NCBI RefSeq assembly: GCF_000421465.1
Contig: NZ_ATXB01000001.1
Location: 558,001-622,000, forward strand
Length of the DNA stretch: 64,000 nucleotides
Direction: 5' to 3'
From: Methylohalobius crimeensis 10Ki
GTDB lineage: Bacteria > Pseudomonadota > Gammaproteobacteria > Methylococcales > Methylothermaceae
The position numbers and the translations under genes are program-made. Below, one piece after another: positions 2,456 to 59,917 of this stretch (position 1 is its first letter; every line of letters begins with the position of its first letter). The notes under the pieces are model-generated. The model made no database searches, was not told the DNA's origin, and saw only the letters and a program-made list of their open reading frames with translations.

Positions 2456-3103
2456 CTATTTGTCAAACACATCGTGCAAATAAGCCAAGCGAGTCAGTTC
2501 CGCCAGGGTATCCACCTCCAGTTTGCGTTTTATTTGGGTGATATAGTTAGCCACGGTTTTGTTGCTGATGTGCAGTTTCTCGGCGATCTTATGGGTGGTG
2601 AGCCCGCGCGCGGCCAGGCAAAAAATCTCAAATTCACGATTGGAAAGGCAGCCCAGCAGGGTTTCTCCGGATGCGCCGCTGGCGTATTGCGCCACCAGTT
2701 GCTGAGCAATGGCGTCCACGACGTAACTTTGGCCTCGGGCGATTTTCAAAATCGCCTCGGGCAGGATTTCCGGATCGGCGTTTTTGGGAATATAGCCCTT
2801 GGCGCCTGCTTCCAGTGCGCGTTTGGCGTAAAGCGTTTCCTGGTGCATGGTGAAGATCAATATCTTGGCGTCGGGGTCCCGCGCCAGCAGGCGGCGAATC
2901 ACCGCAAGCCCCCCGGCCCCCGGAATGGATAGATCCAGCACCATGACATCCGGCCGGTGCTTGAAATAGGCGTGATAGGCGTCGTGGCTGTCCCCGGCTT
3001 CGGCCACGATTTGGATTTCCGGGAATTGATCCAGCAGGAAACGGTACCCGGCCCGGACCACCGCGTGATCATCCACGAGCATGACGCGAATGGGCATTGG
3101 CAT
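2456..3103 (-). CDS. NarL/LuxR-family response regulator
   Basis: This two-domain regulator has 215 residues. The receiver domain (1-122) has the acidic pair D11-D12, the phosphorylatable D57 in VLDLSIPG, T85 and K107. The LuxR-type helix-turn-helix occupies about 145-210 (LSNREFEIFCLAARGLTTHKIA). The start was chosen at the first Met of MPMPIRV, behind a GAGGAAG purine tract. The gene overlaps the end of the upstream histidine kinase by 35 bases, so the two are translationally linked and form a cognate pair. The pair sits immediately upstream of mxaF in divergent orientation. Response regulators such as MxaB control methanol dehydrogenase genes in methylotrophs, so it is a candidate mxa regulator; that link is inferred from position. 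Confidence 0.9.
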   Translation of the reverse strand: MPMPIRVMLVDDHAVVRAGYRFLLDQFPEIQIVAEAGDSHDAYHAYFKHRPDVMVLDLSIPGAGGLAVIRRLLARDPDAKILIFTMHQETLYAKRALEAGAKGYIPKNADPEILPEAILKIARGQSYVVDAIAQQLVAQYASGASGETLLGCLSNREFEIFCLAARGLTTHKIAEKLHISNKTVANYITQIKRKLEVDTLAELTRLAYLHDVFDK

Positions 3104-4451
3104 TTTCTTCCTCTTCTTCCTCGAATGGTAACCATACACACATCGTGAATCCCTGACCGGGTTCGGTGCGAATCTCGAATCGGCCCCCCAAGCTTTCCAC
3201 CCGCTCCCGCATTCCCCGCAAGCCGCAACCTTGGGATGAATCGATCTTCGTGCCGCGGCCGTCATCTATGACTTTAATTCTCAGCCAGCGCCTACGGGGA
3301 ACGTCGCTGGTTTGCCGGGTCAGGTTCACCCGAATTTCTTTGGCGTGGGCGTGCTTGAAGGCGTTGGTGAGGGATTCCTGGACAATCCGATAGACATGAA
3401 TCTGGCTGTCCCGCGGAAAACGATCCACGATTTGGTCGCAGTTCAGATGGATCCGAGTGTCGGCCTGCTTTTCCCGCCAACCGGAAACCAAGGTGTCGAT
3501 GGCCGCGGATAGGCCGAGATCGTCCAGCATCAGGGGGCGCAGTTTCTGGATCATCAGGCGAATGATGTCGAATAAATGATCCACGTTCGCGGTGATATTT
3601 TTTGCCGCATGAACGACCGGCTCGCGGTCGCTGCCTTTTTGGATCGATCGCGCCATTACCTTGATGGCGCTGAGGACCTGTCCCAATTCGTCGTGCAGTT
3701 CGCGGGCCAGCAGGCGCCGCTCTTCCTCTTCCACTTTCAGCAATTGGCGGGTTAGATTGCGGTTGTCGCTGCGGGTTTGTTCCAGCACGTCGACATAGTG
3801 GTTGAACGCCGCCGCGATCCGGTTGAAATCGGGGTCGGAAAAGCTGGGTAGGCGGCAATGGTAGTTTCCCTGCTCCAATGCCTGCAGTCCCTGCAGAATG
3901 GCGTCCACCGGCCGGAAGGCACGCCCCAGGACGATGGTCACGGCGATGAAGAATCCCAGCACCAGTAGGGCGAATAACCCTAAAAACACCCGCGTTTCGT
4001 GCCAGGCCTCGAGAAATTCGTCGCGGGGGTCGGCGACCAAAGTCACCCGCAGCCGACCGCCTTCGCGGATGGGGATCAACTGTTCGATCCGCAGAGGAGG
4101 CGGCTGGATCAGTTTGATAAACCAGCGGGGGATTTCGGGGTTGCCGTATTCGGGCGCGGGAGGTTCGGGGGCGAGAACCCGGTCGCGGGTCACATGAAGG
4201 CGGACGTGACGGAGTTGGTTCAGGCTCGCCAGCATCGCGATCCAGGGTTGCACCATGGACTCCGACAGCGGTCCTTGAAGGTAGGTGGCTTCCACGGTTC
4301 GGCGGGCCATTTCCATCGCTGAAACCGTTTCCTCGGCCACCGACTGGCGCACTCGGTGAATCACCAGAAAACTGCCGAGCGCCACGATGCCGATCAAAAT
4401 GGCGGCAATGATCAGGTTGAGACGGGTTTTCAGACTGAAGTGTCGGAGCAT
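3069..4451 (-). CDS. Sensor histidine kinase (HAMP, HisKA_3, HATPase_c)
   Basis: The product has 460 residues. Transmembrane helices at about 11-31 and 155-177 bracket a periplasmic sensor region of roughly 120 residues. A HAMP linker follows (GRAFRPVDAILQGLQALEQG), then the NarX/UhpB-type dimerisation box with the phosphoacceptor H253 in LLARELHDELGQ. The ATPase domain has its N box at IVQESLTNAFKHA and a glycine box at DDGRGTK. It would sense an unknown envelope signal and phosphorylate the response regulator whose start lies within its 3' end. It diverges from mxaF, leaving 214 bases between them. The signal cannot be deduced. Confidence 0.9.
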   Translation of the reverse strand: MLRHFSLKTRLNLIIAAILIGIVALGSFLVIHRVRQSVAEETVSAMEMARRTVEATYLQGPLSESMVQPWIAMLASLNQLRHVRLHVTRDRVLAPEPPAPEYGNPEIPRWFIKLIQPPPLRIEQLIPIREGGRLRVTLVADPRDEFLEAWHETRVFLGLFALLVLGFFIAVTIVLGRAFRPVDAILQGLQALEQGNYHCRLPSFSDPDFNRIAAAFNHYVDVLEQTRSDNRNLTRQLLKVEEEERRLLARELHDELGQVLSAIKVMARSIQKGSDREPVVHAAKNITANVDHLFDIIRLMIQKLRPLMLDDLGLSAAIDTLVSGWREKQADTRIHLNCDQIVDRFPRDSQIHVYRIVQESLTNAFKHAHAKEIRVNLTRQTSDVPRRRWLRIKVIDDGRGTKIDSSQGCGLRGMRERVESLGGRFEIRTEPGQGFTMCVWLPFEEEEEENANAHSRHARG

Positions 4452-45683: not shown

Positions 45684-47492
<1,809 letters not shown>

Positions 47493-47505: not shown

Positions 47506-47582
<77 letters not shown>

Positions 47583-47626: not shown

Positions 47627-48395
47627 TTGGTTCTATGGCGTTGCTTGAAGCCAAGCATACGATTGCAACTCCCCTTGCTCAAGGTTTCGGCTTGCTCGAA
47701 TAGTTTTGACCGATTTGTGCAATCGGCGGTGGTTGGCCGGTTCCTTTTGCAGATAGGCGGTTTCATCCTCTTTCCGGTGGCGTAAATCCTCCAGATATTC
47801 CAATACCGCTTCCCGCGGCAAAAGCCGGTCAGACGCTTTCCTGCAGCGATTCCAGGTTAAGTGTCGAGTCGTTCGGGATTCTGGGTAATCTCTAATCTCC
47901 CACAGGTCCCCCGACGTCTGCATCGCCAGCCAAGATTCCTCAGTGATAATCCTTCTAGTTCACGTCGATGGCGTTCTGGTTGACGAATCGGAGGACCAAG
48001 CGCAGTTTTCCGGAAACGAAAACGGTAATGTAGCCGGTGATCTTCTGCATTGGATTCCGCAACCAATATACGTTTTCGCCACGATGTACAACGAACTTTT
48101 GTGGATAGTGTCGCGTTTTCGAATTCCCAGGGACCGCGAATTGGCAAAGTGAGATATAGCTCAAGGTTCCGATTTGTAAAATTTTTTTAAACTCGGATTA
48201 AGCAAAAAATTGAGTGGCCAGTTGCCGGTTTGATAGGGCTAACCTGATCCTTCTCCTGGCTTGTTCGCTTGTCCGCCTAATCGGGGACAAAAATCGCGAT
48301 TGGCGCTTTGACTGGGAAAACTGAAAAAAAATGACGAAGAAATGGGATTTATCGCCAATCACTATAACTTCTATGCATATTGCATACTTAGGCAA
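47627..48395. other. Gene-poor gap before the giant secreted protein
   Basis: These about 770 bases carry only short, mutually overlapping frames on both strands, none recognised. Composition is mixed and becomes AT-rich towards 48200-48390. It may be decayed coding DNA or a long promoter region for the giant gene. A TTGACT at 48308-48313 lacks a good -10 at the right distance. Confidence 0.4.
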
Positions 48396-51300
48396 ATGAA
48401 GTCGACTCATAAGCGACGGAACTTAGTTACTAGCCATGTAATTCTGTTGACTTTATTGCTGGTGTGGGGAGGCAAAGCGGTGTCTGCCGATGGTGGCATC
48501 AACTGGCTAGCGACACAGGCTCAGGTCAACGGAAGCTATACGGGACCTTCTAGTCTTGCTACCCCATTCCAGGCAACTGCGGAAACCCTACGAACTTTTT
48601 TCCACCTGGATAAGCCGTCACAGCCGGGGATTCCCGGAGCGCGCCAATTTCTGGAAAGCGATAGCTATCCAAGCACCGAGCATCTCAGCCGTCTGATTCT
48701 CATGCAAGCCGATGCCGGTTTCGGCGTTGCCGAAGCGGTTGAGTCGTTGATCGACAACGCCAATCCGGGCGGCGGATTCGGCGAGTTAGAAGGTTACTCT
48801 AGTACGGCGCTGGATACTGCTTTCGCGCTCGAGGCATTGAATGCTGCAGGTTATAACAGTCATGAAATCGCATGGCGTGCTCTAGATTTTTTACTGAATG
48901 CGCAAAGGCCCAACGGCGGCTGGCGCGAAGGAGACAATGCTTCCAGCGTCTACGTCACCGGATTGGTTCTTCACGCGCTGGCACCATACAGGACAAGCGT
49001 TCAGGACGTAGCAGAAGCCATCTCCGCAGCGCGCAGCTTTTTGTTCTCCAAACGGGGCGCCGACGGTTTGTGGAGTGAGGACTTTGCAAGCGCAACCGCT
49101 CTGATGGCGTTGATTGTCAGCGCTACCGATATTACCCCGCTTCAATCCACCGCAGACGCCCTTGCGGCACGGCAAAGAACCAACGGCAGCTGGTCCGATG
49201 ATGTCTTTTCCACTGCACTGGCTTTGCGGGCTTTGTGGCTTTACCAGCTCAGTTCAGCGGAGGTGAAATCTAACCTAGACGGAAGCGTCGGCGGTCGTGT
49301 GGTGACATCGGGAAGCGAGGCGCCGGTCGCCAATGCGGAAGTCTTTTTGGCTTCGCGTCCGGAATTTCGTGTTGTGACCGGAGAGGATGGCTATTTCCAT
49401 TTAACGGGTGTGCCTGCGGGAACGGAAACCGTGGTCGCGGAAAAAGAGGGTTATTTGTCCGTCACCAATGTGGTGACCGTTTTCGCCGATCAGGAGTCGA
49501 ATGCGGGGCAGTTGCTTCTGGCTTATAGTCCCCAAAGCGGCATCGTCACCGGTTCTATTACAGATAGCCATGATCAAAGTGCCTTATCCGGTGCGACGGT
49601 GAGCTTGATCGGTGCACAAGTTTATACCACAACCACGGGGGCCCGCGGTGCCTTTGAATTGGTTGGCATCGCCCCCGGCGATTATCAAGTGACTGTCGAA
49701 AAGACGGGTTATGTCACGGCTTCCGGCCAGGTGCATGCGGTTGCCGGCGAAGTCTTGGCACTGCGGCAGACGCTCGTGAGGACGGGTGCGTTTTTGGATG
49801 AGGCACCGGGCAACGTGACAGGGAGAGTGGTCGACGGCGCGACAGGCTCGCCAATCGCCGATGCCCGAATCGCGCTTAATGGAGAGATATCGGCAAGTAC
49901 GGATGGCAACGGTAACTTCCAGCTTCCCTCGTTGGCACGCGGATCGTACCAAGCCACCCTAACGGCCGATGGCTACCGTGGTCAAATTATTTTCTTCGTA
50001 TTCAATCCCGGCGCTTCAGGGGAACTTGGCACCTTGCGCCTTTACCACCTCAGTGACGCTATCGCGCCGTTCTCGCTGACACTCCATGGTCGGGTGATTG
50101 ATGGGGTGACGGGACAGCCGATCAGCGGTGCGTCGATCAAACGATTGGGGACGGAGCTTGCCGTACAGTCCGATTTTAACGGTGTCTTCACTTTATCGGA
50201 GTTGGAGGTGCTGAATTTTGAGCTCGTCTTTTCCGCCCCCGGCTATGTTGAGCGGACATTTACGCTTTCGGCCAGTGGTTATGGTGAATTTCAGCAGGAC
50301 TTTTTATTGCCTCCTGAAGAGGGTGATCCGAATGCCCCAACCACTACATTGACCGGCGTGGTCAAAAATCAATCGACGGGGGAACCGATCGCGGGAGCCA
50401 ACGTCTGGTTGTCGGGCGATCAAGGGTTTTTGGCACAGACCGACAGGGAAGGGCGGTTTGAAATCGTGGGCATTGATGCGCTCGAGTTCTCCCTTCGGGC
50501 GAGTGCGGTGGGGTACGTGGAAACCGCCCGGCAGCTGACCTTGTCCGCCCACGGGGTCTATATGCTTGATATTGACCTTGAGCCGCTTGCCGACGATCCA
50601 GCGAAGGAGCGTTTCCAGGTGGTTTCGCTGATGGCTCTGAGTGAATCGGTCGGTGCTGACGAAACCGTGATATTCGAAGCGGAGATCGGCAATTTGAGAG
50701 ACCAGGCGCAGGATGTTTTGGTCATCGGTGAAATGGTCAATGGGGCTGAAGAACCGATGGCAACGGTTATGCCTTATATCCCCGGCACCACTCAAACGGA
50801 GAGTCAATTCAGTTTTGCACCCGGGGAGGTCAAAACGCTCGACATCCCATGGCCTGTCGCACAAGCTGCGCCGGGCGACTACCAACTCATCCTGCGAGTG
50901 GTCGAACCCGGTACCGTCAGCCGCTCGCTGCCTACCGGTGTGGTGCTGGCCAAAGATAGAGCTTACGGTACGGTTCATCCGAGTGCCGCTTTCGACGGGA
51001 CCCTCGGGCTGCAGCCGCCGCTGACCCAAGCGGGAACCCAAGTGCCGGTGAAGCTCGATGCCCTGGTTGTCAATAGCGGCAACGTGCCTCTTGAGAATCT
51101 CGCGCTGACATTGGTCATTGAGAATCCCGCGAGCGGCAATGTGGTGCACGAGGCAAGTGCCTCTTTCGGCCGGTTGGCGGTCAGCAATCATAAGCTGGTG
51201 AGCTTCGGCGAATGGATTCCAACAGCTGAAGGTAATCTGGATATCCGCATCGAATCTGCAGAGCCAAGTATCGCCGGTGAAATCCGCGGCAATTTTTACG

Positions 51301-54300
51301 TGGGCGATAAGGCGACGGGTACCTTTGCCGTGGATAAGGCCGTCGTCCCGGAAGGTACCCGGACGGTGCGGGGTACCGTGACCCTGGACGGCGTCGATAC
51401 CGCTCTCGGAAGTACCACCGACCCATTGTTTTTTGCCGTGCGCAAAGCGGTACAAACCGGCGGAGAATACACAGCCCGCGAAGCCATGGCCTGGCAGCGG
51501 CGCAACCGCTGCATGGGCTGCCATATCCAGACGCAGAGTTTGGTGGGGGTAGCCGCGGCTTTCCAAAAGAATTTGGGCGATGAGGCTTCCGCCGTCAGTC
51601 TCTATAACACGATTGCCAGCAGCCGACAGGACGACGGCGGGTTGCGCTCCAGTCGCCCTCACAAGACGCGTACCCAGACCGCTTTGGGGGCATGGTCGCT
51701 TTCAGGTTGGGACGACATCGAAACCAGTTTTAGAACTCTATATAAAGCTGCCGAACATCTCTACGAGCGCAAGTCGCGGTCAGGCAATCGAACCTGGTGG
51801 AGTCCGGATCAAAAAGGCGGCTGGTGGTATTCCAGCGATGCCCATACCGCTATGACAGTCAAGGCGTATACCCGGTTGCTCAATGCTGCCGCTGAGATCG
51901 ATGTCGTGCAGATCGACGATTATCGTCTCGATGAGGTAGCAGGGCTTGGGCCAGGTGTCAAACCTCGGGATTTGGAAGTCGGACCGGACGGCTATCTCTA
52001 TGCCATCAAGCAGACGGGCGACCTGGTTCGGATCGATCCCGATACGGGCGTCGCTGAGACGGTCGGCGATCGCTTGCCTATCGACGGCTTCGGCCTTGCC
52101 ATCGACGCCGACGGAATAATTTACGTCTCCGGCAGGGGCGGCAAGCTGATTCGCCGGCATCCGGACGGTACCGTCGACACCCTGCTGTCGGGAAGCGGGG
52201 TGCTCACCGATGTGGAGATCGGCTTCGACGGGCTTCTTTATGTAGCGGACTATAGCCATCGTCGTATTTTGAAGGTGACCGCTACCGGCCAGTCGACGGT
52301 GTGGGCCGGGGGAGGCGTCCTCAATCGTCCTTATGGGCTGACACTCGATGAAGAAGGCAATGCATTCGTTGCCAACTACGGCGGTTTCAATATCGTCAAG
52401 GTAGATTCCGGCGGCACAGCGTCGATTTTTACCAACGGTCTCCAATACCGGCCGATCTGGATTGATCGAAATAGTTTGGGAGAATTCTATTTCTCGACCG
52501 CTTCCTATTCGAGCGAGGGACAATTTACCCCGGATGCCCTCAATCATCTCAGCGATCGCGGCGTGGTGGAGCGTTTGGCATCCGGCAATACCCTGCGCGG
52601 GGTAGCAGTGATGGGCGGGCGGACGTTTGCCGTGAGCACCAATGGCAACACTTTGCTGAAACTTCAGACCATACCTCTTGAGACCACATTGTTGCCAAAT
52701 TTTGCCGAGGAAGTCGCCCGTGCGGCGAATTACTTCCTGGCCCGTTATGGGGACAATACTTCGGACAACATCGTTCAGGCCATGAGGCTGACCGGACTGG
52801 CCGAAGCCCGCCGCGTGGTTGCGGACGAAGCGCTGAAGACGGAAATCGACGCGGCCATCGACACCATCGAACAGGTGCTACGTAAACGTCAGCGAGCGGA
52901 CGGCGGCTGGGGCCGCTATGTCGGCTGGGGAAGCGATTCCATGGTGACGGCCTTGGTCGGCATCGCCCTCGATTACACCGACCCCTCGAAGAACGATCCC
53001 CTGGTGCGCAATACCATCCAATATCTCCTGTCGAGTCAGCTCAGCGATCACTCCTGGCGCAGTGCCAATAGAATCCTGACGACGCGCCTGGCGGCGACCA
53101 GTTTGGTCGTGACTTATTTACCCGTCGCCTTGGAGCGTTTGGGCGGCATCGATGTGGATCTGCATCTGGCATTTCCCGAAAATTCGACATTGTCGGCGCC
53201 TTCCATTGCACCCTCGGAGCAATCCACCGACACCAGCGGCCACACCGAGTACCGTTGGCAGCTTCTCGGAGTGACTTCGAGCAGCCGGCAGCTCGATTTC
53301 GACCTGACCCTCGTCGATTTGGCCTTGGGCGAGGAACGGCCGGTGGCGCTGGAAGCCTACATCGAATTTCAGAACTCCTTCAACGAAGAAAAGATTCGTG
53401 TCGATCTGCCCATACCAACGGTTCGGGCGGAGAGCGAGATGAAGTTGACCCTCGGCACCGACCGCACCAACTACCAAGCTAACGATACCGTCGCTATCGA
53501 TGTCGCCGTCGACAATACGGGGACGACCGTGGCGGACGGTCGCGTCGAATTGGCGATTCGGGCCGCGGGATCGAGCGATTCCCTCGCGGTTCTCGATCCC
53601 CATTCATTCACCGGATTGGTTTCCGGCGAACAGTTGCCGATGACCGACGACTGGGGAACCGGAACTACCTTGGTGGGTGAATATGCGGTCCACGCGCGTC
53701 TTTTGGACGCCCAAGATCGCTTGCTCGATTATAAAACCGCGCCGTTCACCATCGATCATGGCGAGGCGCCGGTGATCGACGCACGGGTGTTGACCGACAA
53801 ACCGGTCTACGAAGCCTGGGATCAAGTATTGATCGAGGGACGGGTGGCCAATGTCAGCGAAAATGTCATTCAGCCACCGACGCGAGGCGTACTGACCGTT
53901 GCCGATCCCTCCGGCACGGTGATTTATACCAATCACGGCGATGTCGGCGAATTGGTTCCAGAGGGACTGCGGGATCTCGGCTTCACCTTGACCTTGGCCG
54001 ACGCCCCGGCCGGTATCTATTCGATCACTTGGGAGGTGCTGGACGACTTCAGCCATGCGCTCTTGGCGACGCGAACGACCGATTTCACCGTAGAGCGGCA
54101 GGCGGTCCAAGGCTTGACCGGAAGCGTCGAAGCTGCACCGACCCGGGTTTATCAAGGCGATCCGGTGCAGTGTTCGGAGCAGGTGACCAATCTCGCTGCA
54201 TCCGACTTGGCCGGTGTCAAACTGGTGAGTCAATTGGTCCGTCTCACCGATGAGCATGTCGTCGAAGGAGGTTCTCGGTTGGTGGATCTGAAAGGTGAGG

Positions 54301-55685
54301 GCACCCTCGTCGATCTCCGCGAGATTTCCACGGACGACCTGGCAGTAGGCGAGTACGCCTGCGTGCTGACTGCGGAAATCGAAGAGACCAGCCGCCAAAT
54401 CGGCGTGGCATTTTTTGCGGTCTTGGAGCCGCCGATCCGAATCGAAGGGCAGCTGACGAGTGGCGACCGCGGTCGCGTGCTGGTGCTCCTTGACGAGGTG
54501 CCCCAAAAAGGTCGTGGCCCTTCCAAGGGCGGCAATGACCCCTTGGGACCCAACCATCGTCCCGACCTGCCTATCCAGCGCACGGTTCTGGAAACCCTGC
54601 TGACGGAGGCGGGTTGGTCCTATACCGTCGTGACCCGGTCCGACGACTTCGCCCGGGAACTCCGAAGCGGCGGCTATGTGGCCTACCTGCTGCTGTCCGA
54701 ACAGGTCAAGCTGGCAGAAAGTGTACAGAAAGAATTGCGCGAAGCGGTTTATCGCGGCGAGGGGTTGGTGGAGGCCGGTGGCCACGATCAGCGTCAGGGA
54801 AGGATCGACGAGGCGCTGGGGGTGACGTTCCACGGCAAGTACGCCGGGATGACCGGCGTCGGTTTGCTCGACAGCCCGGTTGCATCGTCTGGAGACGCCG
54901 AATTTCAACTGGTCGACCGAAGCCTCCGAGCCAGCCTGGAAGGAGCCACGGCGATCGGTTACTTCAGCGCCGACGGAATGGCGACCGGCGAACCCGCCGT
55001 GACGGCTTACGAATACGGCCTGGGCAGAACGGTCTACGCCGGCATCGATCTATTGGCCGAGGCCTCGTTGACCGGCGCGGATGGTCTTTACGGCGAGCTT
55101 ATGCTCGACGCTCTGGCCTATGTCCATCCGGACGATTTGACGCACTTAACCCAAGTCGTATATCCGGTGCGCGTGGCGCTCGACAATCAGGGGATCGCGA
55201 CCCCGGGACAAGTGATCCTCTCCTTGCCGGAAGGCGTCACCGTGGTGGATGCCCGCGGCGCCGAAATCGACGCCGATGCACTTATCTGGCCTTTCGATCT
55301 GGCGGAAGGCGGCCATGTCACTTTCCACGCCTGGCTCAAACTGCCGGACGTGCCGGTGCCAATTGACGCGCTGATCCAAAGCGGCGCCGCTCCGGACTGG
55401 GAGGACCAAGAGGCGTTGACCCTGGATCTGGCGCCGGCGCCTTTGATCACGGTAGAGGAAGCGTATGCCTTGGCCGCACCGATCAAGGGCCAAGCCTACA
55501 AACAGGTGCGGAAATATCTGCAATGGGCGCAAAACGACAGCGCTGCGGGCGACTGGCCGGCGGCGCTGTCGTCGCTCCTTCGCGCCGCCGATGCCCTGAT
55601 TCCCATCGCCACGCCAGAGAGCGAGTCGCTGCGGGAAGCCGTGGCCCGCGCGATCCGCACCGTATCCATTCACATTGAACTATAA
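48396..55685 (+). CDS. Giant secreted multidomain protein (toroid repeats, CnaB-like repeats, CxxCH, NHL-like propeller)
   Basis: From the ATG of MKSTHKRRNLVTSHVILLTLL, a signal peptide ending near AVSA, the product has about 2,429 residues. In order: a prenyltransferase/terpenoid-cyclase-like helical toroid (about 35-290; GGWREGDNASSVYVTGLVLHA); five carboxypeptidase-regulatory/CnaB-like beta repeats (about 295-730; GRVVDGATGSPIADARI); Ig-like segments (to about 1005); a second toroid-like part with c-type heme motif C1039-M-G-C-H1043; an NHL-like propeller (about 1170-1430; PRDLEVGPDGYLYAI); a third toroid segment (about 1440-1580); more Ig-like segments (to about 2020); a glutamine-amidotransferase-like domain (about 2025-2245); and a helical tail. 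No wall anchor or autotransporter barrel is seen. Its function is unknown; it is probably an extracytoplasmic scaffold encoded with the next gene. Confidence 0.85.
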   Translation: MKSTHKRRNLVTSHVILLTLLLVWGGKAVSADGGINWLATQAQVNGSYTGPSSLATPFQATAETLRTFFHLDKPSQPGIPGARQFLESDSYPSTEHLSRLILMQADAGFGVAEAVESLIDNANPGGGFGELEGYSSTALDTAFALEALNAAGYNSHEIAWRALDFLLNAQRPNGGWREGDNASSVYVTGLVLHALAPYRTSVQDVAEAISAARSFLFSKRGADGLWSEDFASATALMALIVSATDITPLQSTADALAARQRTNGSWSDDVFSTALALRALWLYQLSSAEVKSNLDGSVGGRVVTSGSEAPVANAEVFLASRPEFRVVTGEDGYFHLTGVPAGTETVVAEKEGYLSVTNVVTVFADQESNAGQLLLAYSPQSGIVTGSITDSHDQSALSGATVSLIGAQVYTTTTGARGAFELVGIAPGDYQVTVEKTGYVTASGQVHAVAGEVLALRQTLVRTGAFLDEAPGNVTGRVVDGATGSPIADARIALNGEISASTDGNGNFQLPSLARGSYQATLTADGYRGQIIFFVFNPGASGELGTLRLYHLSDAIAPFSLTLHGRVIDGVTGQPISGASIKRLGTELAVQSDFNGVFTLSELEVLNFELVFSAPGYVERTFTLSASGYGEFQQDFLLPPEEGDPNAPTTTLTGVVKNQSTGEPIAGANVWLSGDQGFLAQTDREGRFEIVGIDALEFSLRASAVGYVETARQLTLSAHGVYMLDIDLEPLADDPAKERFQVVSLMALSESVGADETVIFEAEIGNLRDQAQDVLVIGEMVNGAEEPMATVMPYIPGTTQTESQFSFAPGEVKTLDIPWPVAQAAPGDYQLILRVVEPGTVSRSLPTGVVLAKDRAYGTVHPSAAFDGTLGLQPPLTQAGTQVPVKLDALVVNSGNVPLENLALTLVIENPASGNVVHEASASFGRLAVSNHKLVSFGEWIPTAEGNLDIRIESAEPSIAGEIRGNFYVGDKATGTFAVDKAVVPEGTRTVRGTVTLDGVDTALGSTTDPLFFAVRKAVQTGGEYTAREAMAWQRRNRCMGCHIQTQSLVGVAAAFQKNLGDEASAVSLYNTIASSRQDDGGLRSSRPHKTRTQTALGAWSLSGWDDIETSFRTLYKAAEHLYERKSRSGNRTWWSPDQKGGWWYSSDAHTAMTVKAYTRLLNAAAEIDVVQIDDYRLDEVAGLGPGVKPRDLEVGPDGYLYAIKQTGDLVRIDPDTGVAETVGDRLPIDGFGLAIDADGIIYVSGRGGKLIRRHPDGTVDTLLSGSGVLTDVEIGFDGLLYVADYSHRRILKVTATGQSTVWAGGGVLNRPYGLTLDEEGNAFVANYGGFNIVKVDSGGTASIFTNGLQYRPIWIDRNSLGEFYFSTASYSSEGQFTPDALNHLSDRGVVERLASGNTLRGVAVMGGRTFAVSTNGNTLLKLQTIPLETTLLPNFAEEVARAANYFLARYGDNTSDNIVQAMRLTGLAEARRVVADEALKTEIDAAIDTIEQVLRKRQRADGGWGRYVGWGSDSMVTALVGIALDYTDPSKNDPLVRNTIQYLLSSQLSDHSWRSANRILTTRLAATSLVVTYLPVALERLGGIDVDLHLAFPENSTLSAPSIAPSEQSTDTSGHTEYRWQLLGVTSSSRQLDFDLTLVDLALGEERPVALEAYIEFQNSFNEEKIRVDLPIPTVRAESEMKLTLGTDRTNYQANDTVAIDVAVDNTGTTVADGRVELAIRAAGSSDSLAVLDPHSFTGLVSGEQLPMTDDWGTGTTLVGEYAVHARLLDAQDRLLDYKTAPFTIDHGEAPVIDARVLTDKPVYEAWDQVLIEGRVANVSENVIQPPTRGVLTVADPSGTVIYTNHGDVGELVPEGLRDLGFTLTLADAPAGIYSITWEVLDDFSHALLATRTTDFTVERQAVQGLTGSVEAAPTRVYQGDPVQCSEQVTNLAASDLAGVKLVSQLVRLTDEHVVEGGSRLVDLKGEGTLVDLREISTDDLAVGEYACVLTAEIEETSRQIGVAFFAVLEPPIRIEGQLTSGDRGRVLVLLDEVPQKGRGPSKGGNDPLGPNHRPDLPIQRTVLETLLTEAGWSYTVVTRSDDFARELRSGGYVAYLLLSEQVKLAESVQKELREAVYRGEGLVEAGGHDQRQGRIDEALGVTFHGKYAGMTGVGLLDSPVASSGDAEFQLVDRSLRASLEGATAIGYFSADGMATGEPAVTAYEYGLGRTVYAGIDLLAEASLTGADGLYGELMLDALAYVHPDDLTHLTQVVYPVRVALDNQGIATPGQVILSLPEGVTVVDARGAEIDADALIWPFDLAEGGHVTFHAWLKLPDVPVPIDALIQSGAAPDWEDQEALTLDLAPAPLITVEEAYALAAPIKGQAYKQVRKYLQWAQNDSAAGDWPAALSSLLRAADALIPIATPESESLREAVARAIRTVSIHIEL

Positions 55686-55711: not shown

Positions 55712-58669
55712 ATGCAGATTCCCCTCCTTGCCAGCATGCGACACACCTCCCGCTTCATGCGCGGCACCGCCGCGTCGGCGCTCATTGCTTTCGTCATGCT
55801 CATTCTGCAGCCCACGATCGCGGCGGCGCGATCCGATAATACGCCCGCCCCTCCGCGCACGCCGGGTCACAGTGACGGCGTGGAATCCAAGCTGTCCAGG
55901 ACGTTGCAGCTGATTGAGCGCAAATTGGCAAGCGCGGAAGATAAATTGCTAAGACACCAGGGTGTCAGTGCGGAGCGCCGTGATATTAAGCAACTACGAA
56001 ATACGCTCAAGCAACTCGATTCCGCAGCCAGAAAGGACTTTGCGCGAATCGAACGGCACATCCTCGACCACCAACTGGCGCCGGTCGTCTTGGAGCGCCA
56101 TCGGGCCATGATCGACAACTACCGCCGGGAACTGCAAAGCCTAATCGATGAGTTGGAAGGCATCGAAGCCAGCAGCGACGACCACAATCGGTTGATCCAT
56201 ATCCAAAACGCCAAACGCCGGCTGAAAGCCAAACGGAACCAACGCAGTCAGCAGCCATTCGACCCCAATCAGCTGCCCAACACCCGTCTGCAGCCGCAGC
56301 CCAACCGCAAGCCTCGGGAAAAAAAAGCCGACTTTATTCAGGCCGGCCTGATCGATACCCCGCTTATCAATCTGGCCGCGCTGGGCGACTTCAGCTTTGA
56401 CAAGCTAGTCGGAGCCGACAACCCGGCCTATTTAGCAGAAAGCCCCGAAATCGTCCTGACCCGGGCCATCAAGGACAAAGCGGCCGAGCTCAATCACGAT
56501 CCGGTCAAGATCTACCACTGGGTCAGAAACAACGTCCAATGGCAGCCCACCTGGGGCGGCATCCAAAATGCCGAACTGACCCTTTCCGCCCTGCGCGGCA
56601 ACGCCATGGACATCGCCGGGCTCACCATCGCCCTGCTGCGTGCCTCGGGCATTCCTGCCCGCTACGTGCACGGCACCATCGATGTCCCGGCTGACGAATT
56701 CAAGAACTGGGCCGGAGGCTTTACTGACGTCACCGCCGCCGCCACATTCGCCTCTTCCGGCGGCATTCCCGTCACTTCCATCATCAGCGGCGGCCAGATC
56801 AGCAAGGTGCGTCTGGAACACGTCTGGGTGGAAGCCGCCATCGACTACATGCCCTCGCGCGGCGCCAAAAACCGGGATGCCGACGCCTGGGTGGCGCTGG
56901 ACCCCAGCTACAAGCAGTATGAATTCAAGAAGGGCCTGGATGCCGTCGCCATCAGCGGCATCGACCCCGAGCAGCTGGCGCAAAGCTTCATCGACAGCGG
57001 CACCGTCAACGAAACGGAAGGCTGGGTCACGGGTTTCGACCCGACCATTCTGCAGAACGCGCAGACTCAGGCGCAGCAGCAGCTCGAAGCCTACATCCAG
57101 GAGAACCTCACCGACCCCACGGTGGGCGACGTCATCGGCGGACGCCAAACCATCATCCAGGAATACCCGATGCTGCCCTCCGGCCTGCCCAACCGGATCG
57201 TCGTCGCCGGCAGCCGTTACGACAAGTTGCCGGCGAAGCTTCAGCAGACGATCACCTGGGCCTTCGGCAAGGACATCCTCGGCGACCTGATCGACCCGGT
57301 GAGCCTCCCCTTCGCCCGGGTCAACAACGAAAAGATCACCCTTTCGTTCAAGCCCGCCACGGAAGCCGACGAACAGGCCCTGCTGTCGCTCTTGCCGGAA
57401 GGCGAGATCACCGACATCAGCCAGCTGCCGACCAGCATCCCGGCCTACCTGGTCAACGTGGTGCCGGAACTGGCCGTCAATGGCCAAGTGGTGAAAACCG
57501 GCAGCGCCATGAGGCTCGGCGAAGAACTCGACTTCGTCACCGCCACGCGCTTTGCAGGGCGCGGGCAACTGCAAAGCCCCCGTACCTACAAAGTCATCGT
57601 AGGTTCCTACTTGGCCGTCAACGCCTACGCCGGCAGCGTCTCCCCGGCCCAGCTGCAAGCGGTGAAAACCAAGCTGGAGCAGACCAAAGCGGTGCTGGAA
57701 AGCGCCGACCAGGCCCAAATCGGCGCCCTGACCCGGGAGGCGCTCCTGGGCGACCTGTTCCACGCCGGGGGACTGGGCTACTACGCCCAACTCACCGCCC
57801 TGAGCCATATCCTGGGCTTGCGAACGGGAGGCCACCAGACCCTCGCGGCCGGCACCGGCACCTTCGGCTACGAGCCCAATGTCGACTACTTCTTCGGCTC
57901 GCCGAGAAACCTCAAGCCCGGCGGCGTGGTATTCGACATCCCCCTGGTCAAGATCAGCGCCACCGACGACGGCGATGCCGAGCGGCAAAGACAGTTCACT
58001 CTGCAAACCGGCATTCTCAGCTCGGCGCTGGAACATGCCGTGCCGGAACAGATGTTCGTCAACGACCAGAACCCGGGTGAAGCCATTTCCGCCGTCAAAG
58101 CCCTGCAAAAGGCCAACGCCCAAGGCCAGCGCATCTACCACATCACCCAGGCCAATCAATCGGCCATACTGCCTAATATCCATCATCATTTAGACACCAT
58201 GGACGAAATCCGAAACGCTTTGAATAACGGGAAGGAGGTAATTACCCATACGGATGCGGTGAGCGTGCCGGGTTGGTCGGGTGCGGGCTATGTCATCGTC
58301 GATCCGGTGACTGGAGATGGGGCTTATAAAATTGCAGGTGGAGGAAATGGAGGGTATTTGTTTCTGCAAGGCTCCTTCATGGGTATTTTATTGCCATCAG
58401 CTATGTTGTTGGTATTTGGTGGAGGGTTGCTCGGAATTCTCAGTGCCGTATTATCTGTAGTTATAATGACATACATTTTAATAGAGGTATCAGCGCAACA
58501 GAAGGCTGGGTGCTTTTGGGCTGGTTTTTCTGCTGGGTTGGGTATTTTGACATCGATTGGAGTAGAAGTTGGTAAAAGAGCAAGCTTTATATTTTGGATG
58601 CTTACACTGGCATTGTCATATAATTCTACAACTGGCACGGAGCCAATTGAAAGATGTCTGGAGTTTTAA
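55712..58669 (+). CDS. Transglutaminase-fold secreted protein with hydrophobic variable-looking tail
   Basis: The 985-residue protein has a signal peptide (about 15-42), an alpha-helical region (about 55-175), and a transglutaminase-like core near 245-400. The core keeps H370 (LEHVWVEA) and D397 (VALDPSYK) but has GNAMD at 296-300 where active enzymes have a Cys, so it is probably not a cysteine enzyme; this GNA-type variant is known from RHS-associated proteins. A central region (about 410-880) follows, ending GAGYVIVDPVTGDGAYKI. After a glycine linker the last about 100 residues are hydrophobic, with several membrane helices, and the DNA turns sharply AT-rich. The tail looks exchanged, as in polymorphic toxins. 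The gene follows the giant gene by 26 bases. Confidence 0.8.
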   Translation: MQIPLLASMRHTSRFMRGTAASALIAFVMLILQPTIAAARSDNTPAPPRTPGHSDGVESKLSRTLQLIERKLASAEDKLLRHQGVSAERRDIKQLRNTLKQLDSAARKDFARIERHILDHQLAPVVLERHRAMIDNYRRELQSLIDELEGIEASSDDHNRLIHIQNAKRRLKAKRNQRSQQPFDPNQLPNTRLQPQPNRKPREKKADFIQAGLIDTPLINLAALGDFSFDKLVGADNPAYLAESPEIVLTRAIKDKAAELNHDPVKIYHWVRNNVQWQPTWGGIQNAELTLSALRGNAMDIAGLTIALLRASGIPARYVHGTIDVPADEFKNWAGGFTDVTAAATFASSGGIPVTSIISGGQISKVRLEHVWVEAAIDYMPSRGAKNRDADAWVALDPSYKQYEFKKGLDAVAISGIDPEQLAQSFIDSGTVNETEGWVTGFDPTILQNAQTQAQQQLEAYIQENLTDPTVGDVIGGRQTIIQEYPMLPSGLPNRIVVAGSRYDKLPAKLQQTITWAFGKDILGDLIDPVSLPFARVNNEKITLSFKPATEADEQALLSLLPEGEITDISQLPTSIPAYLVNVVPELAVNGQVVKTGSAMRLGEELDFVTATRFAGRGQLQSPRTYKVIVGSYLAVNAYAGSVSPAQLQAVKTKLEQTKAVLESADQAQIGALTREALLGDLFHAGGLGYYAQLTALSHILGLRTGGHQTLAAGTGTFGYEPNVDYFFGSPRNLKPGGVVFDIPLVKISATDDGDAERQRQFTLQTGILSSALEHAVPEQMFVNDQNPGEAISAVKALQKANAQGQRIYHITQANQSAILPNIHHHLDTMDEIRNALNNGKEVITHTDAVSVPGWSGAGYVIVDPVTGDGAYKIAGGGNGGYLFLQGSFMGILLPSAMLLVFGGGLLGILSAVLSVVIMTYILIEVSAQQKAGCFWAGFSAGLGILTSIGVEVGKRASFIFWMLTLALSYNSTTGTEPIERCLEF

Positions 58670-59150
58670 ATGATATATTATGTTATGTCTTGCCTAATAA
58701 TAATTATTTTTTCAAAATACATTTATCGTTTATATGTGATGATGGATGGAAAGAATAAGCAAATATTTGGATTTGAAGACATCGATCCTGTAGCTATAGT
58801 TGTTGTGGTTTGTGTGGGGTTTGTCCCAATGATTGTATATTTTACAGAATACGAATTATGGTTTATTTTGTTGGCCTTTGTATTGATTTCAATATGTTTA
58901 TGTGAAAAACCGAGTGTCGTTATGAAGCTATTCTGTTTGTCGGTTGTATTTCTAAGTATTTCTTTGCGGCTCGGTGTTTCTGGTTATTATCTCATAGCTA
59001 TTAGCGCTATCTTTCCTCTTTTTAGCTTTATAGTTTTTATTTTATCTAAAATTTTTATGAAGTGGGATGGGGTTTTGTTTAAAATCTGAATCCGTATTAG
59101 ATAACTAACTTTTGCGGGATTATTTGCTCATTTCTGTGACAGCTTTTCCT
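58340..59150. other. AT-rich island over the tail of the transglutaminase-fold gene and the next gene
   Basis: Base composition drops abruptly from GC-rich to strongly AT-rich near 58340, inside a reading frame, and returns near 59155 at the ABC permease gene. Codon use follows: TTA, AAT, ATA and TTT dominate. The change inside one gene is a sign of recombination that replaced the 3' module together with its downstream neighbour. Confidence 0.7.
58670..59089 (+). CDS. Small AT-rich membrane protein, candidate immunity or partner protein
   Basis: The 139-residue protein starts directly at the stop of the preceding gene (TAA then ATG). It has about four or five hydrophobic segments: CLIIIIFSKYIYRLYVM, AIVVVVCVGFVPMIVYF, LWFILLAFVLISICLC and two towards the C-terminus. 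No family was recognised. It shares the AT-rich composition of the tail before it. In polymorphic toxin loci, a small gene abutting a toxin tail commonly encodes the immunity protein, and membrane toxins have membrane immunity proteins; that role here is inference. Confidence 0.7.
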   Translation: MIYYVMSCLIIIIFSKYIYRLYVMMDGKNKQIFGFEDIDPVAIVVVVCVGFVPMIVYFTEYELWFILLAFVLISICLCEKPSVVMKLFCLSVVFLSISLRLGVSGYYLIAISAIFPLFSFIVFILSKIFMKWDGVLFKI

Positions 59151-59155
59151 CTTCC

Positions 59156-59917
59156 TCAAGCTTTCAACCGATACCCTGTTTTGAAAATTAACCAAATCGC
59201 GAAGAGACAAACCAGCAGAAACGATAGAATCACGCCCAAGCTAATGAGGATATCCACATCGGCGACTTCATAGAAGCTCCAGCGAAAACCGCTGATCAGA
59301 TAGACCACCGGATTGAACATGGATAGGGTTCGCCAAGGTGAGGGTAGCATGTGAATCGAATAGAAGGTCCCGCCCAGAAAAGTCAGCGGGGTGAGAATCA
59401 TCAGCGGAATGATCTGCAGCTTTTCGAAACTGTCCGCCCAGATGCCGATGATGAAGCCGAACAGGCTGAATGACAACGCGGTAAGCAACAGAAAGCCGAA
59501 CATCAAAAACGGATGGGCGATGTGGTAATCCACGAACAAGCGTGCCGTCCCCAGGGTTAACAAGCCGACGATCACCGACTTGGTCGCCGCGGCCCCGACG
59601 TATCCGGCGACGATTTCCACTGCGGAAATGGGCGCGGACAGGATTTCGTAGATCGTGCCGATGAACCTCGGCATATAGATGCCGAACGACGCGTTGGAAA
59701 TGCTTTCGTTCAGCAGCATCAGCATGATCAGTCCGGGAATGATATAGGTCCCGTAGCTGATGCCGTCGATCTCGATCATGCGCGAGCCGATGGCCGAGCC
59801 GAATACGACGAAGTAGAGCGAAGTCGAGATGACCGGCGAAAGGATGCTTTGCATCAGGGTGCGGCCGGTACGCGCCATCTCGAATCGATAAATCGCTTTG
59901 ATGCCGTACCAATTCAT
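59156..59917 (-). CDS. ABC-2 type transporter permease, YadH-like
   Basis: The 253-residue protein has six membrane helices and the ABC-2 permease pattern, with [20 protein letters not shown] near the N-terminus and the conserved [15 protein letters not shown] plus [17 protein letters not shown]. It resembles E. coli YadH. The start overlaps the ATPase stop (ATGA), so the two subunits are coupled. The transported substrate is unknown. Confidence 0.92.

What the first reader, a model, noticed from the sequence alone, without database searches (positions are those of the whole stretch)
58340..59150. Abrupt AT-rich switch inside a reading frame: likely exchanged tail plus immunity-like gene
The DNA goes from GC-rich to strongly AT-rich within the reading frame, just after GAGYVIVDPVTGDGAYKI and a glycine linker, and stays so through the abutting 139-residue membrane gene. 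Both encoded parts are hydrophobic. This is the footprint expected when a variable C-terminal module and its partner gene are swapped together.
Basis: partly seen in the sequence, partly recalled or inferred. Interest (0 to 1): 0.72.

Follow-up and report, generated by a model that had tools for sequence, protein, structure and literature searches.

The report
Swappable membrane-toxin tail with immunity gene
A bacterium related to methane-eating species carries a large secreted-type protein whose greasy tail end, and the small membrane-protein gene right behind it, look like an interchangeable toxin-and-antidote cassette for poisoning rival cells' membranes, a known strategy on an unusual carrier.

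Summary
GC3 falls from 0.78 (body) to 0.36 (tail) and 0.30 (139-aa gene), far below what host codon usage predicts (0.72, 0.71). Homologues keep the body up to about residue 881 and then differ: 25 of 301 order genomes match, the best matches ending at residues ~885-945. The 139-aa gene has no relative in the 300 other genomes.

It is best read as a polymorphic-toxin locus of three genes: a 2447-aa toroid/repeat partner, a Cys-free scaffold with an inactive transglutaminase domain, and a membrane immunity gene. Of 34 usable tails, 24 are short and 10 long. Of 23 short tails with a next gene, 20 are followed by a hydrophobic one; of 9 such long tails, all 9 by a soluble one. Truncated scaffold copies with other tails stand in arrays in relatives.

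The scaffold kind is known (Zhang 2012), but there always with RHS repeats. Here RHS is absent and a giant partner gene sits upstream. Of 23 short tails, 10 carry exactly two cysteines and 13 none, suggesting a disulphide staple. Pore or ionophore action is inferred by analogy with CDI ionophores; structure prediction could not test it.

The parts
47506..47582 (+). tRNA-Met directly upstream of the locus (between rpoD and the operon); possible insertion point, not shown
   Evidence: ARAGORN; rpoD-like ORF 45684-47492
48342..55685 (+). 2447-aa exported-type partner: two alpha/alpha-toroid regions, CarboxypepD_reg repeats, one CXXCH motif
   Evidence: Pfam/NCBIfam hits; its C-terminal 381 residues lie directly upstream of the scaffold in 9 of 9 matches among 301 order genomes
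55712..58669 (+). 985-aa scaffold-toxin gene (delivery scaffold plus variable tail)
   Evidence: ORF; relatives in 25 of 301 order genomes incl. own
56495..56905 (+). transglutaminase-like domain, predicted inactive: Ala298 at the catalytic Cys position, His370 and Asp397 kept
   Evidence: Pfam Transglut_core 1.4e-14; Ala in all 12 of 12 rows that cover the position
58280..58354 (+). junction motif GAGYVIVDPVTGDGAYKIAGGGNGG (residues 857-881), conserved end of the scaffold; GC3 change point inside it at 58310
   Evidence: alignments A1/A2; change point
58355..58666 (+). variable hydrophobic tail (residues 882-985), predicted membrane-active toxin; Cys codons at 58511 and 58655 are the only Cys of the protein
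58670..59089 (+). 139-aa membrane protein, predicted cognate immunity protein; ATG abuts the toxin stop codon
   Evidence: no relative in 300 other order genomes or in plasmids

Best explanation
This is a polymorphic toxin locus with a swapped C-terminal cassette. The 985-aa protein is exported (inferred from its N-terminal signal-like helix and the Cys-free scaffold), displays or delivers its C-terminal ~104-residue hydrophobic tail to neighbouring cells, and the tail inserts into the target inner membrane and depolarises it (inferred). The abutting 139-aa multi-spanning membrane protein sits in the producer's own membrane and blocks the tail (inferred). New tail+immunity cassettes arrive from lower-GC donors and recombine onto the scaffold within the conserved GAGY..TGDGAYKI..GG.NGG junction, which free-standing cassettes also carry (cassettes shown, recombination inferred). 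The transglutaminase-like domain has lost its catalytic Cys and probably only binds or anchors. The 2447-aa partner encoded upstream probably helps export, display or shielding (inferred). Shown: module boundary, tail diversity, foreign composition, cassette arrays in relatives, matched downstream gene type, Cys loss, partner linkage. Not shown: toxicity, immunity, route of delivery.
For: Module boundary at residue ~881. Codon-controlled composition break. Tails: 24 short and hydrophobic, 10 long, in 34 usable of 42 junctions. Downstream gene hydrophobic behind 20 of 23 short tails that have one and soluble behind 9 of 9 long ones, Fisher p 8e-6; of the three short exceptions one also has an overlapping hydrophobic 87-aa ORF and another is a Hint-type split frame, L053. 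Long tails of relatives match DNase_NucA_NucB (L041) and DUF6310 (L034, L037, L044; L044 below Pfam's cut-off). Arrays of N-truncated scaffold copies with different tails: G319/L099, four copies, 300-nt repeats 63-99% alike; G653/L107. Inactive transglutaminase as in the polymorphic toxins of PMC3482391 section 19. 0 of 9 other same-genus genomes have the scaffold, so the locus is sporadic.
Against: No activity data. Structure prediction was poor (tail pTM 0.43, full length pTM 0.25) and the tail model gave no fold match below E 0.001. No Pfam or PDB family for the tail. Related tails do not have detectably related downstream proteins. GxxxG motifs in the tails are not clearly above shuffles (30 against 23.0, p 0.067; three-glycine zippers 3 against 2.1), so the glycine-zipper signature of CDI ionophores is not established.
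Confidence: 0.82

Rival explanations
1. The tail is not a toxin but a variable membrane anchor of a surface protein, and the next gene is an accessory membrane protein (chaperone or sorting factor).
For: All short tails are hydrophobic; the protein is exported-like; the upstream gene encodes a large repeat protein.
Against: An anchor need not be different in each genome, and nuclease-type tails (DNase_NucA_NucB, DUF6310) occupy the same position with soluble downstream genes in relatives. Free-standing linker+tail+small-gene cassettes occur in arrays.
Confidence: 0.08
2. A low-GC DNA fragment was inserted by chance (mobile-element debris), replacing the original C-terminus; tail and small ORF have no function.
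For: Composition break; in one relative (L033) a transposase-type gene does cut the tail right after the junction (the transposase label is from recall).
Against: The frame is kept through junction and tail, the stop and next start abut, and many relatives show the same architecture with different sequences and intact frames.
Confidence: 0.04
3. It is a toxin, but not membrane-active: the hydrophobic tail is a translocation helper or an incomplete toxin, and the real effect lies elsewhere.
For: In long-tail relatives a hydrophobic stretch precedes the soluble toxin part, so the hydrophobic part can serve entry.
Against: In short-tail members nothing follows the hydrophobic part, and the downstream protein is then itself a membrane protein.
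Confidence: 0.06

Closest known systems
Polymorphic toxins with inactive N-terminal transglutaminase domain (Zhang et al. 2012, PMC3482391, section 19)
   Same: Signal-like N-terminus, transglutaminase-like domain lacking catalytic Cys, variable C-terminal toxin; body residues ~189-900 are collinear (27-28% identity) with transglutaminase+DUF6531+RHS giants L020 and L021.
   Different: That paper says such domains are always followed by RHS repeats; here no RHS is found, the tail begins where DUF6531/RHS begin in the giants, and a 2447-aa partner gene lies upstream.
CDI ionophore toxins / CdiI (Halvorsen et al. 2024, PMC11630599)
   Same: Highly diverse hydrophobic helical C-terminal domains, with small, very hydrophobic, fast-diverging membrane immunity proteins.
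   Different: No CdiA scaffold, no entry domain recognised, glycine zipper not established, paired Cys in many tails; no sequence or fold match shown.
Tse5, Rhs pore-forming toxin (PMC10684867, abstract and outline seen; also discussed in PMC11630599)
   Same: Scaffold-delivered pore-forming C-terminus acting on the inner membrane.
   Different: Tse5 encapsulates its toxin in an Rhs shell and uses a type VI secretion system; no Rhs shell here, secretion route not tested.
Rhs orphan cassettes (PMC3967940, PMC7043789; search listing only)
   Same: Displaced truncated copies with alternative toxin tails and immunity genes beside the full gene, as in L099 and L107.
   Different: On an RHS-free scaffold; none displaced in the window itself.

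Membership tests
Polymorphic toxin system (general) | Conserved N-terminal scaffold with diverse, non-homologous C-terminal domains after a fixed junction | tested here: met
Polymorphic toxin system (general) | Small gene directly downstream, different for each tail | tested here: met
   function of that gene not testable here
Polymorphic toxin system (general) | Stand-alone cassettes carrying junction plus alternative tails | tested here: met
   L099, L107, L040, L055; none in the window
Polymorphic toxin system (general) | At least some C-terminal domains belong to known toxin families | tested here: met
   DNase_NucA_NucB in L041; in a relative, not in the window
Polymorphic toxin system (general) | Toxicity and specific immunity | not testable with these tools
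   needs bench work
Inactive-transglutaminase RHS toxins | Transglutaminase-like domain with one or more of C, H, D lost | tested here: met
   Cys to Ala in 12 of 12 rows covering it
Inactive-transglutaminase RHS toxins | RHS repeats after the transglutaminase domain | tested here: not met
   No RHS hit in the window protein at E<=0.1, whereas 4 of 5 giants scanned have them
CDI (CdiA) ionophore | CdiA scaffold (two-partner secretion), entry domain and five-helix ionophore | tested here: not met
   No CdiA-type domain in Pfam/NCBIfam scans; helix count unresolved because the model is poor
CDI (CdiA) ionophore | Glycine zipper in the ionophore domain | tested here: inconclusive
   GxxxG 30 against 23.0 expected, p 0.067; zippers 3 against 2.1

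The most novel reading that the evidence does not exclude
An RHS-free branch of transglutaminase-scaffold toxins has replaced the RHS shell by a separate giant toroid/repeat protein encoded upstream, and specialises in short membrane-active tails, many of them stapled by one disulphide between a mid-tail Cys and a C-terminal Cys. This would be a distinct toxin-delivery system, mainly of Gammaproteobacteria.
Probability: 0.35. Interest if true: 0.7.

Novelty: new variant of a known kind. Interest (0 to 1): 0.5.

Why it matters
If right, it adds a delivery scaffold without RHS, with a linked giant partner, to the known carriers of swappable bacterial toxins, and a large set of unannotated membrane toxin/immunity pairs in methane-oxidising and other Gammaproteobacteria. 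It poses a testable question: how a very hydrophobic tail stays export-competent without an RHS shell. The paired-Cys pattern gives a simple handle on topology and mechanism.

Tried and rejected
Composition as a by-product of hydrophobic residues: rejected by the codon re-sampling control. A known family for the tail or the 139-aa ORF: none in Pfam, NCBIfam or PADLOC, none in plasmids, nothing meaningful among PDB sequences. Phage origin: no match of the scaffold in 50,697 phage records, none for residues of the linker in viral contigs. Structure: both AlphaFold2 jobs are low confidence and the tail fold search gave no E<=0.001, so nothing is built on them. Glycine zipper as a shared signature: not supported. 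Parallel similarity of tails and downstream proteins: not detected. Empty-site test in siblings: only partly done. rpoD is found in 10 of 10 same-genus genomes (own included), and the ABC permease downstream of the locus has only 36-40% relatives in 8 of the 9 siblings, so the borders of any island are not defined. Literature: no paper found with the junction peptides, with Methylococcales plus polymorphic toxin, or, in the listings, describing RHS-free forms; this covers open-licence papers only.

Full report
What is in the sequence. A 985-aa ORF (55712-58669) is followed without a gap by a 139-aa ORF (58670-59089), and upstream lies a 2447-aa ORF (48342-55685). tRNA-Met (47506-47582) and an rpoD-like gene (label from recall) stand before them. 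The window's genome is 3.5 Mb. Its order appears to be Methylococcales: the same-order genome G249 has a contig of the same length (4,984,690), and holds the same kind of locus, as Methylobacter marinus A45 NZ_KB912877.1.

Composition. GC3 is 0.78 in residues 1-877, 0.36 in the rest and 0.30 in the 139-aa ORF. Re-coding the same peptides with the codon usage of the scaffold body and the 2447-aa gene predicts 0.72 and 0.71, and none of 2000 draws reached the observed values. The best single change point is residue 867, inside the conserved motif. The boundary is a little ragged, with a low-GC dip at 58151-58250 before a return to 0.68.

The module boundary. Using residues 647-985 as query, 25 of 301 order genomes (own included) match, and the strongest matches stop between residues ~885 and ~945. 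None of the 9 other same-genus genomes matches. The 139-aa protein matches only itself in the same 301 genomes. Further relatives came from one scan of genome contigs (14 loci), and from 20 of 369 class genomes and 8 of 398 phylum genomes, own included in each. A script found 42 distinct junction instances in the loci held; it missed junctions with other wording, some of which were read later with other patterns. Of the 42, 34 have tails of at least 80 residues not cut by a contig end: 24 short (80-130 aa) and 10 long. Of 276 pairs of short tails, 3 match by blastp at E<=0.01, while the junction region itself stays alike (median 53% over the last 55 residues). The tail's GC3 is below the linker's in 31 of 36 tails (the 36 include 2 tails cut by a contig end; this count has no codon control).

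Downstream genes. Taking the longest ORF starting within -60 to +170 bases of the stop, 20 of 23 short tails with such an ORF are followed by a hydrophobic protein (GRAVY>0.4) and 3 are not; 9 of 9 long tails are followed by a soluble one; one tail of each class has no such ORF (Fisher p 8e-6; related loci are not independent). Of the 3 exceptions, L099 (row 33) also has an overlapping hydrophobic 87-aa ORF, L053 is a Hint-like split frame (motif recognised from recall), and L006 has a 154-aa protein with a hydrophobic N-terminal part. Long tails of relatives match DNase_NucA_NucB (L041) and DUF6310 (L034 second cassette, L037, and L044 below Pfam's cut-off). So the same junction carries both membrane-type and nuclease-type tails.

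Cassettes. In G319 (L099) a full gene is followed by three copies lacking the N-terminal third or more, with 300-nt repeats 63-99% alike and different tails. G653 (L107) has one long copy and four further junctions within about 6 kb. L040 and L055 hold further free cassettes. These are the usual stock for tail exchange in Rhs and CDI loci (recalled; PMC3967940 and PMC7043789 seen in a search listing only). The window has a single copy.

The scaffold. Pfam finds a transglutaminase-like core at residues 262-398. The catalytic Cys is Ala in 12 of 12 rows covering it, while His and Asp are kept (the positions of the triad were assigned by motif from recall). Zhang et al. 2012 (PMC3482391, sections 19 and 36 read whole) describe such inactive domains in polymorphic toxins, always followed by RHS repeats. 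Here there is no RHS hit. Five giants from the loci were compared: L020 and L021 align with residues ~189-900 of the window protein and carry DUF6531 and RHS where its tail begins; L026 and L079 also carry RHS; L076 does not. The RHS-free form is thus a shortened relative of that family, or resembles its ancestor.

The partner. The C-terminal 381 residues of the 2447-aa protein match in 8 of 301 order genomes, all 8 of which are among the 25 with the scaffold, and all 9 matches lie directly upstream of a scaffold copy (one search compared). The genomes of the RHS giants of that order compared here (G063, G169, G065) have no match. The other 17 scaffold genomes without a partner match include several whose scaffold lies at a contig end. 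Outside the order the partner is found upstream in L049, L050, L099, L105 and L109, but in L052 and L102 it was only found downstream of the scaffold. The protein has two alpha/alpha-toroid regions and CarboxypepD_reg repeats and a CXXCH motif at residue 1057. Its role is unknown; replacement of the RHS shell is my inference.

Cysteines. The only cysteines of the 985-aa protein are 934 and 982, both in the tail. In A1 the part before the junction is Cys-free in 14 of 16 rows; the two others are fragments. Of 23 complete short tails (the Hint frame L053 dropped, tails at contig ends dropped), 13 have no Cys and 10 exactly two; an odd number is expected in 9.6 by chance and seen in 0. Nine of the 10 have one Cys mid-tail and one in the last 15 residues. 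Of 14 further tails read afterwards (L103, L113, L105, L112, L117, the second L100 copy and L101 left out as broken, other in kind or unread; L102, L107 and L108 included although some are longer), 11 have a further-in and a near-end Cys, some with extra ones, 2 have none and 1 (L111) has three without a near-end one. A disulphide between the segment after the first hydrophobic hairpin and the C-terminus is the simplest reading, and it would put both on the periplasmic side. This is a sequence pattern, not a demonstrated bond.

Mechanism. The closest working analogue is the CDI ionophore family (PMC11630599: abstract, section 6 and part 1 of the Discussion read): diverse hydrophobic helical C-termini that depolarise target cells, blocked by small, very hydrophobic, fast-diverging membrane immunity proteins. 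The pattern here fits that. The lack of detectable similarity between downstream proteins of related tails may reflect the same fast divergence, but otherwise counts against a simple paired swap. The glycine zipper was not established and the structure models are too poor to compare. Membership in CDI is not claimed.

Verdict. The kind of system is known; the RHS-free scaffold with a linked giant partner and the paired-Cys membrane tails look like a new variant. No description of it was found in the open-licence papers searched.

Noticed in passing
48342-55685 (CXXCH at base 51510): The 2447-aa partner carries one CXXCH (CMGCH) haem-type motif between its two toroid regions.
   Followed up: no
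L053:2114-2431 and next ORF: A Mariprofundaceae relative has a Hint-like start (GCFVGDT) after the junction and a following ORF that looks like its continuation plus a toxin; the frame is split.
   Followed up: no
L033, about 2640-3300: In a Methylobacter MAG the tail is cut right after the junction by a transposase-like gene.
   Followed up: partly
L034, L037, L044: Pfam DUF6310 occurs as a C-terminal domain at the same junction, suggesting that DUF6310 is a toxin domain (L044 below cut-off).
   Followed up: partly
window 59156-59917: The ABC permease downstream has only 36-40% relatives in 8 of the 9 sibling genomes, so the accessory region may extend beyond the toxin locus.
   Followed up: partly
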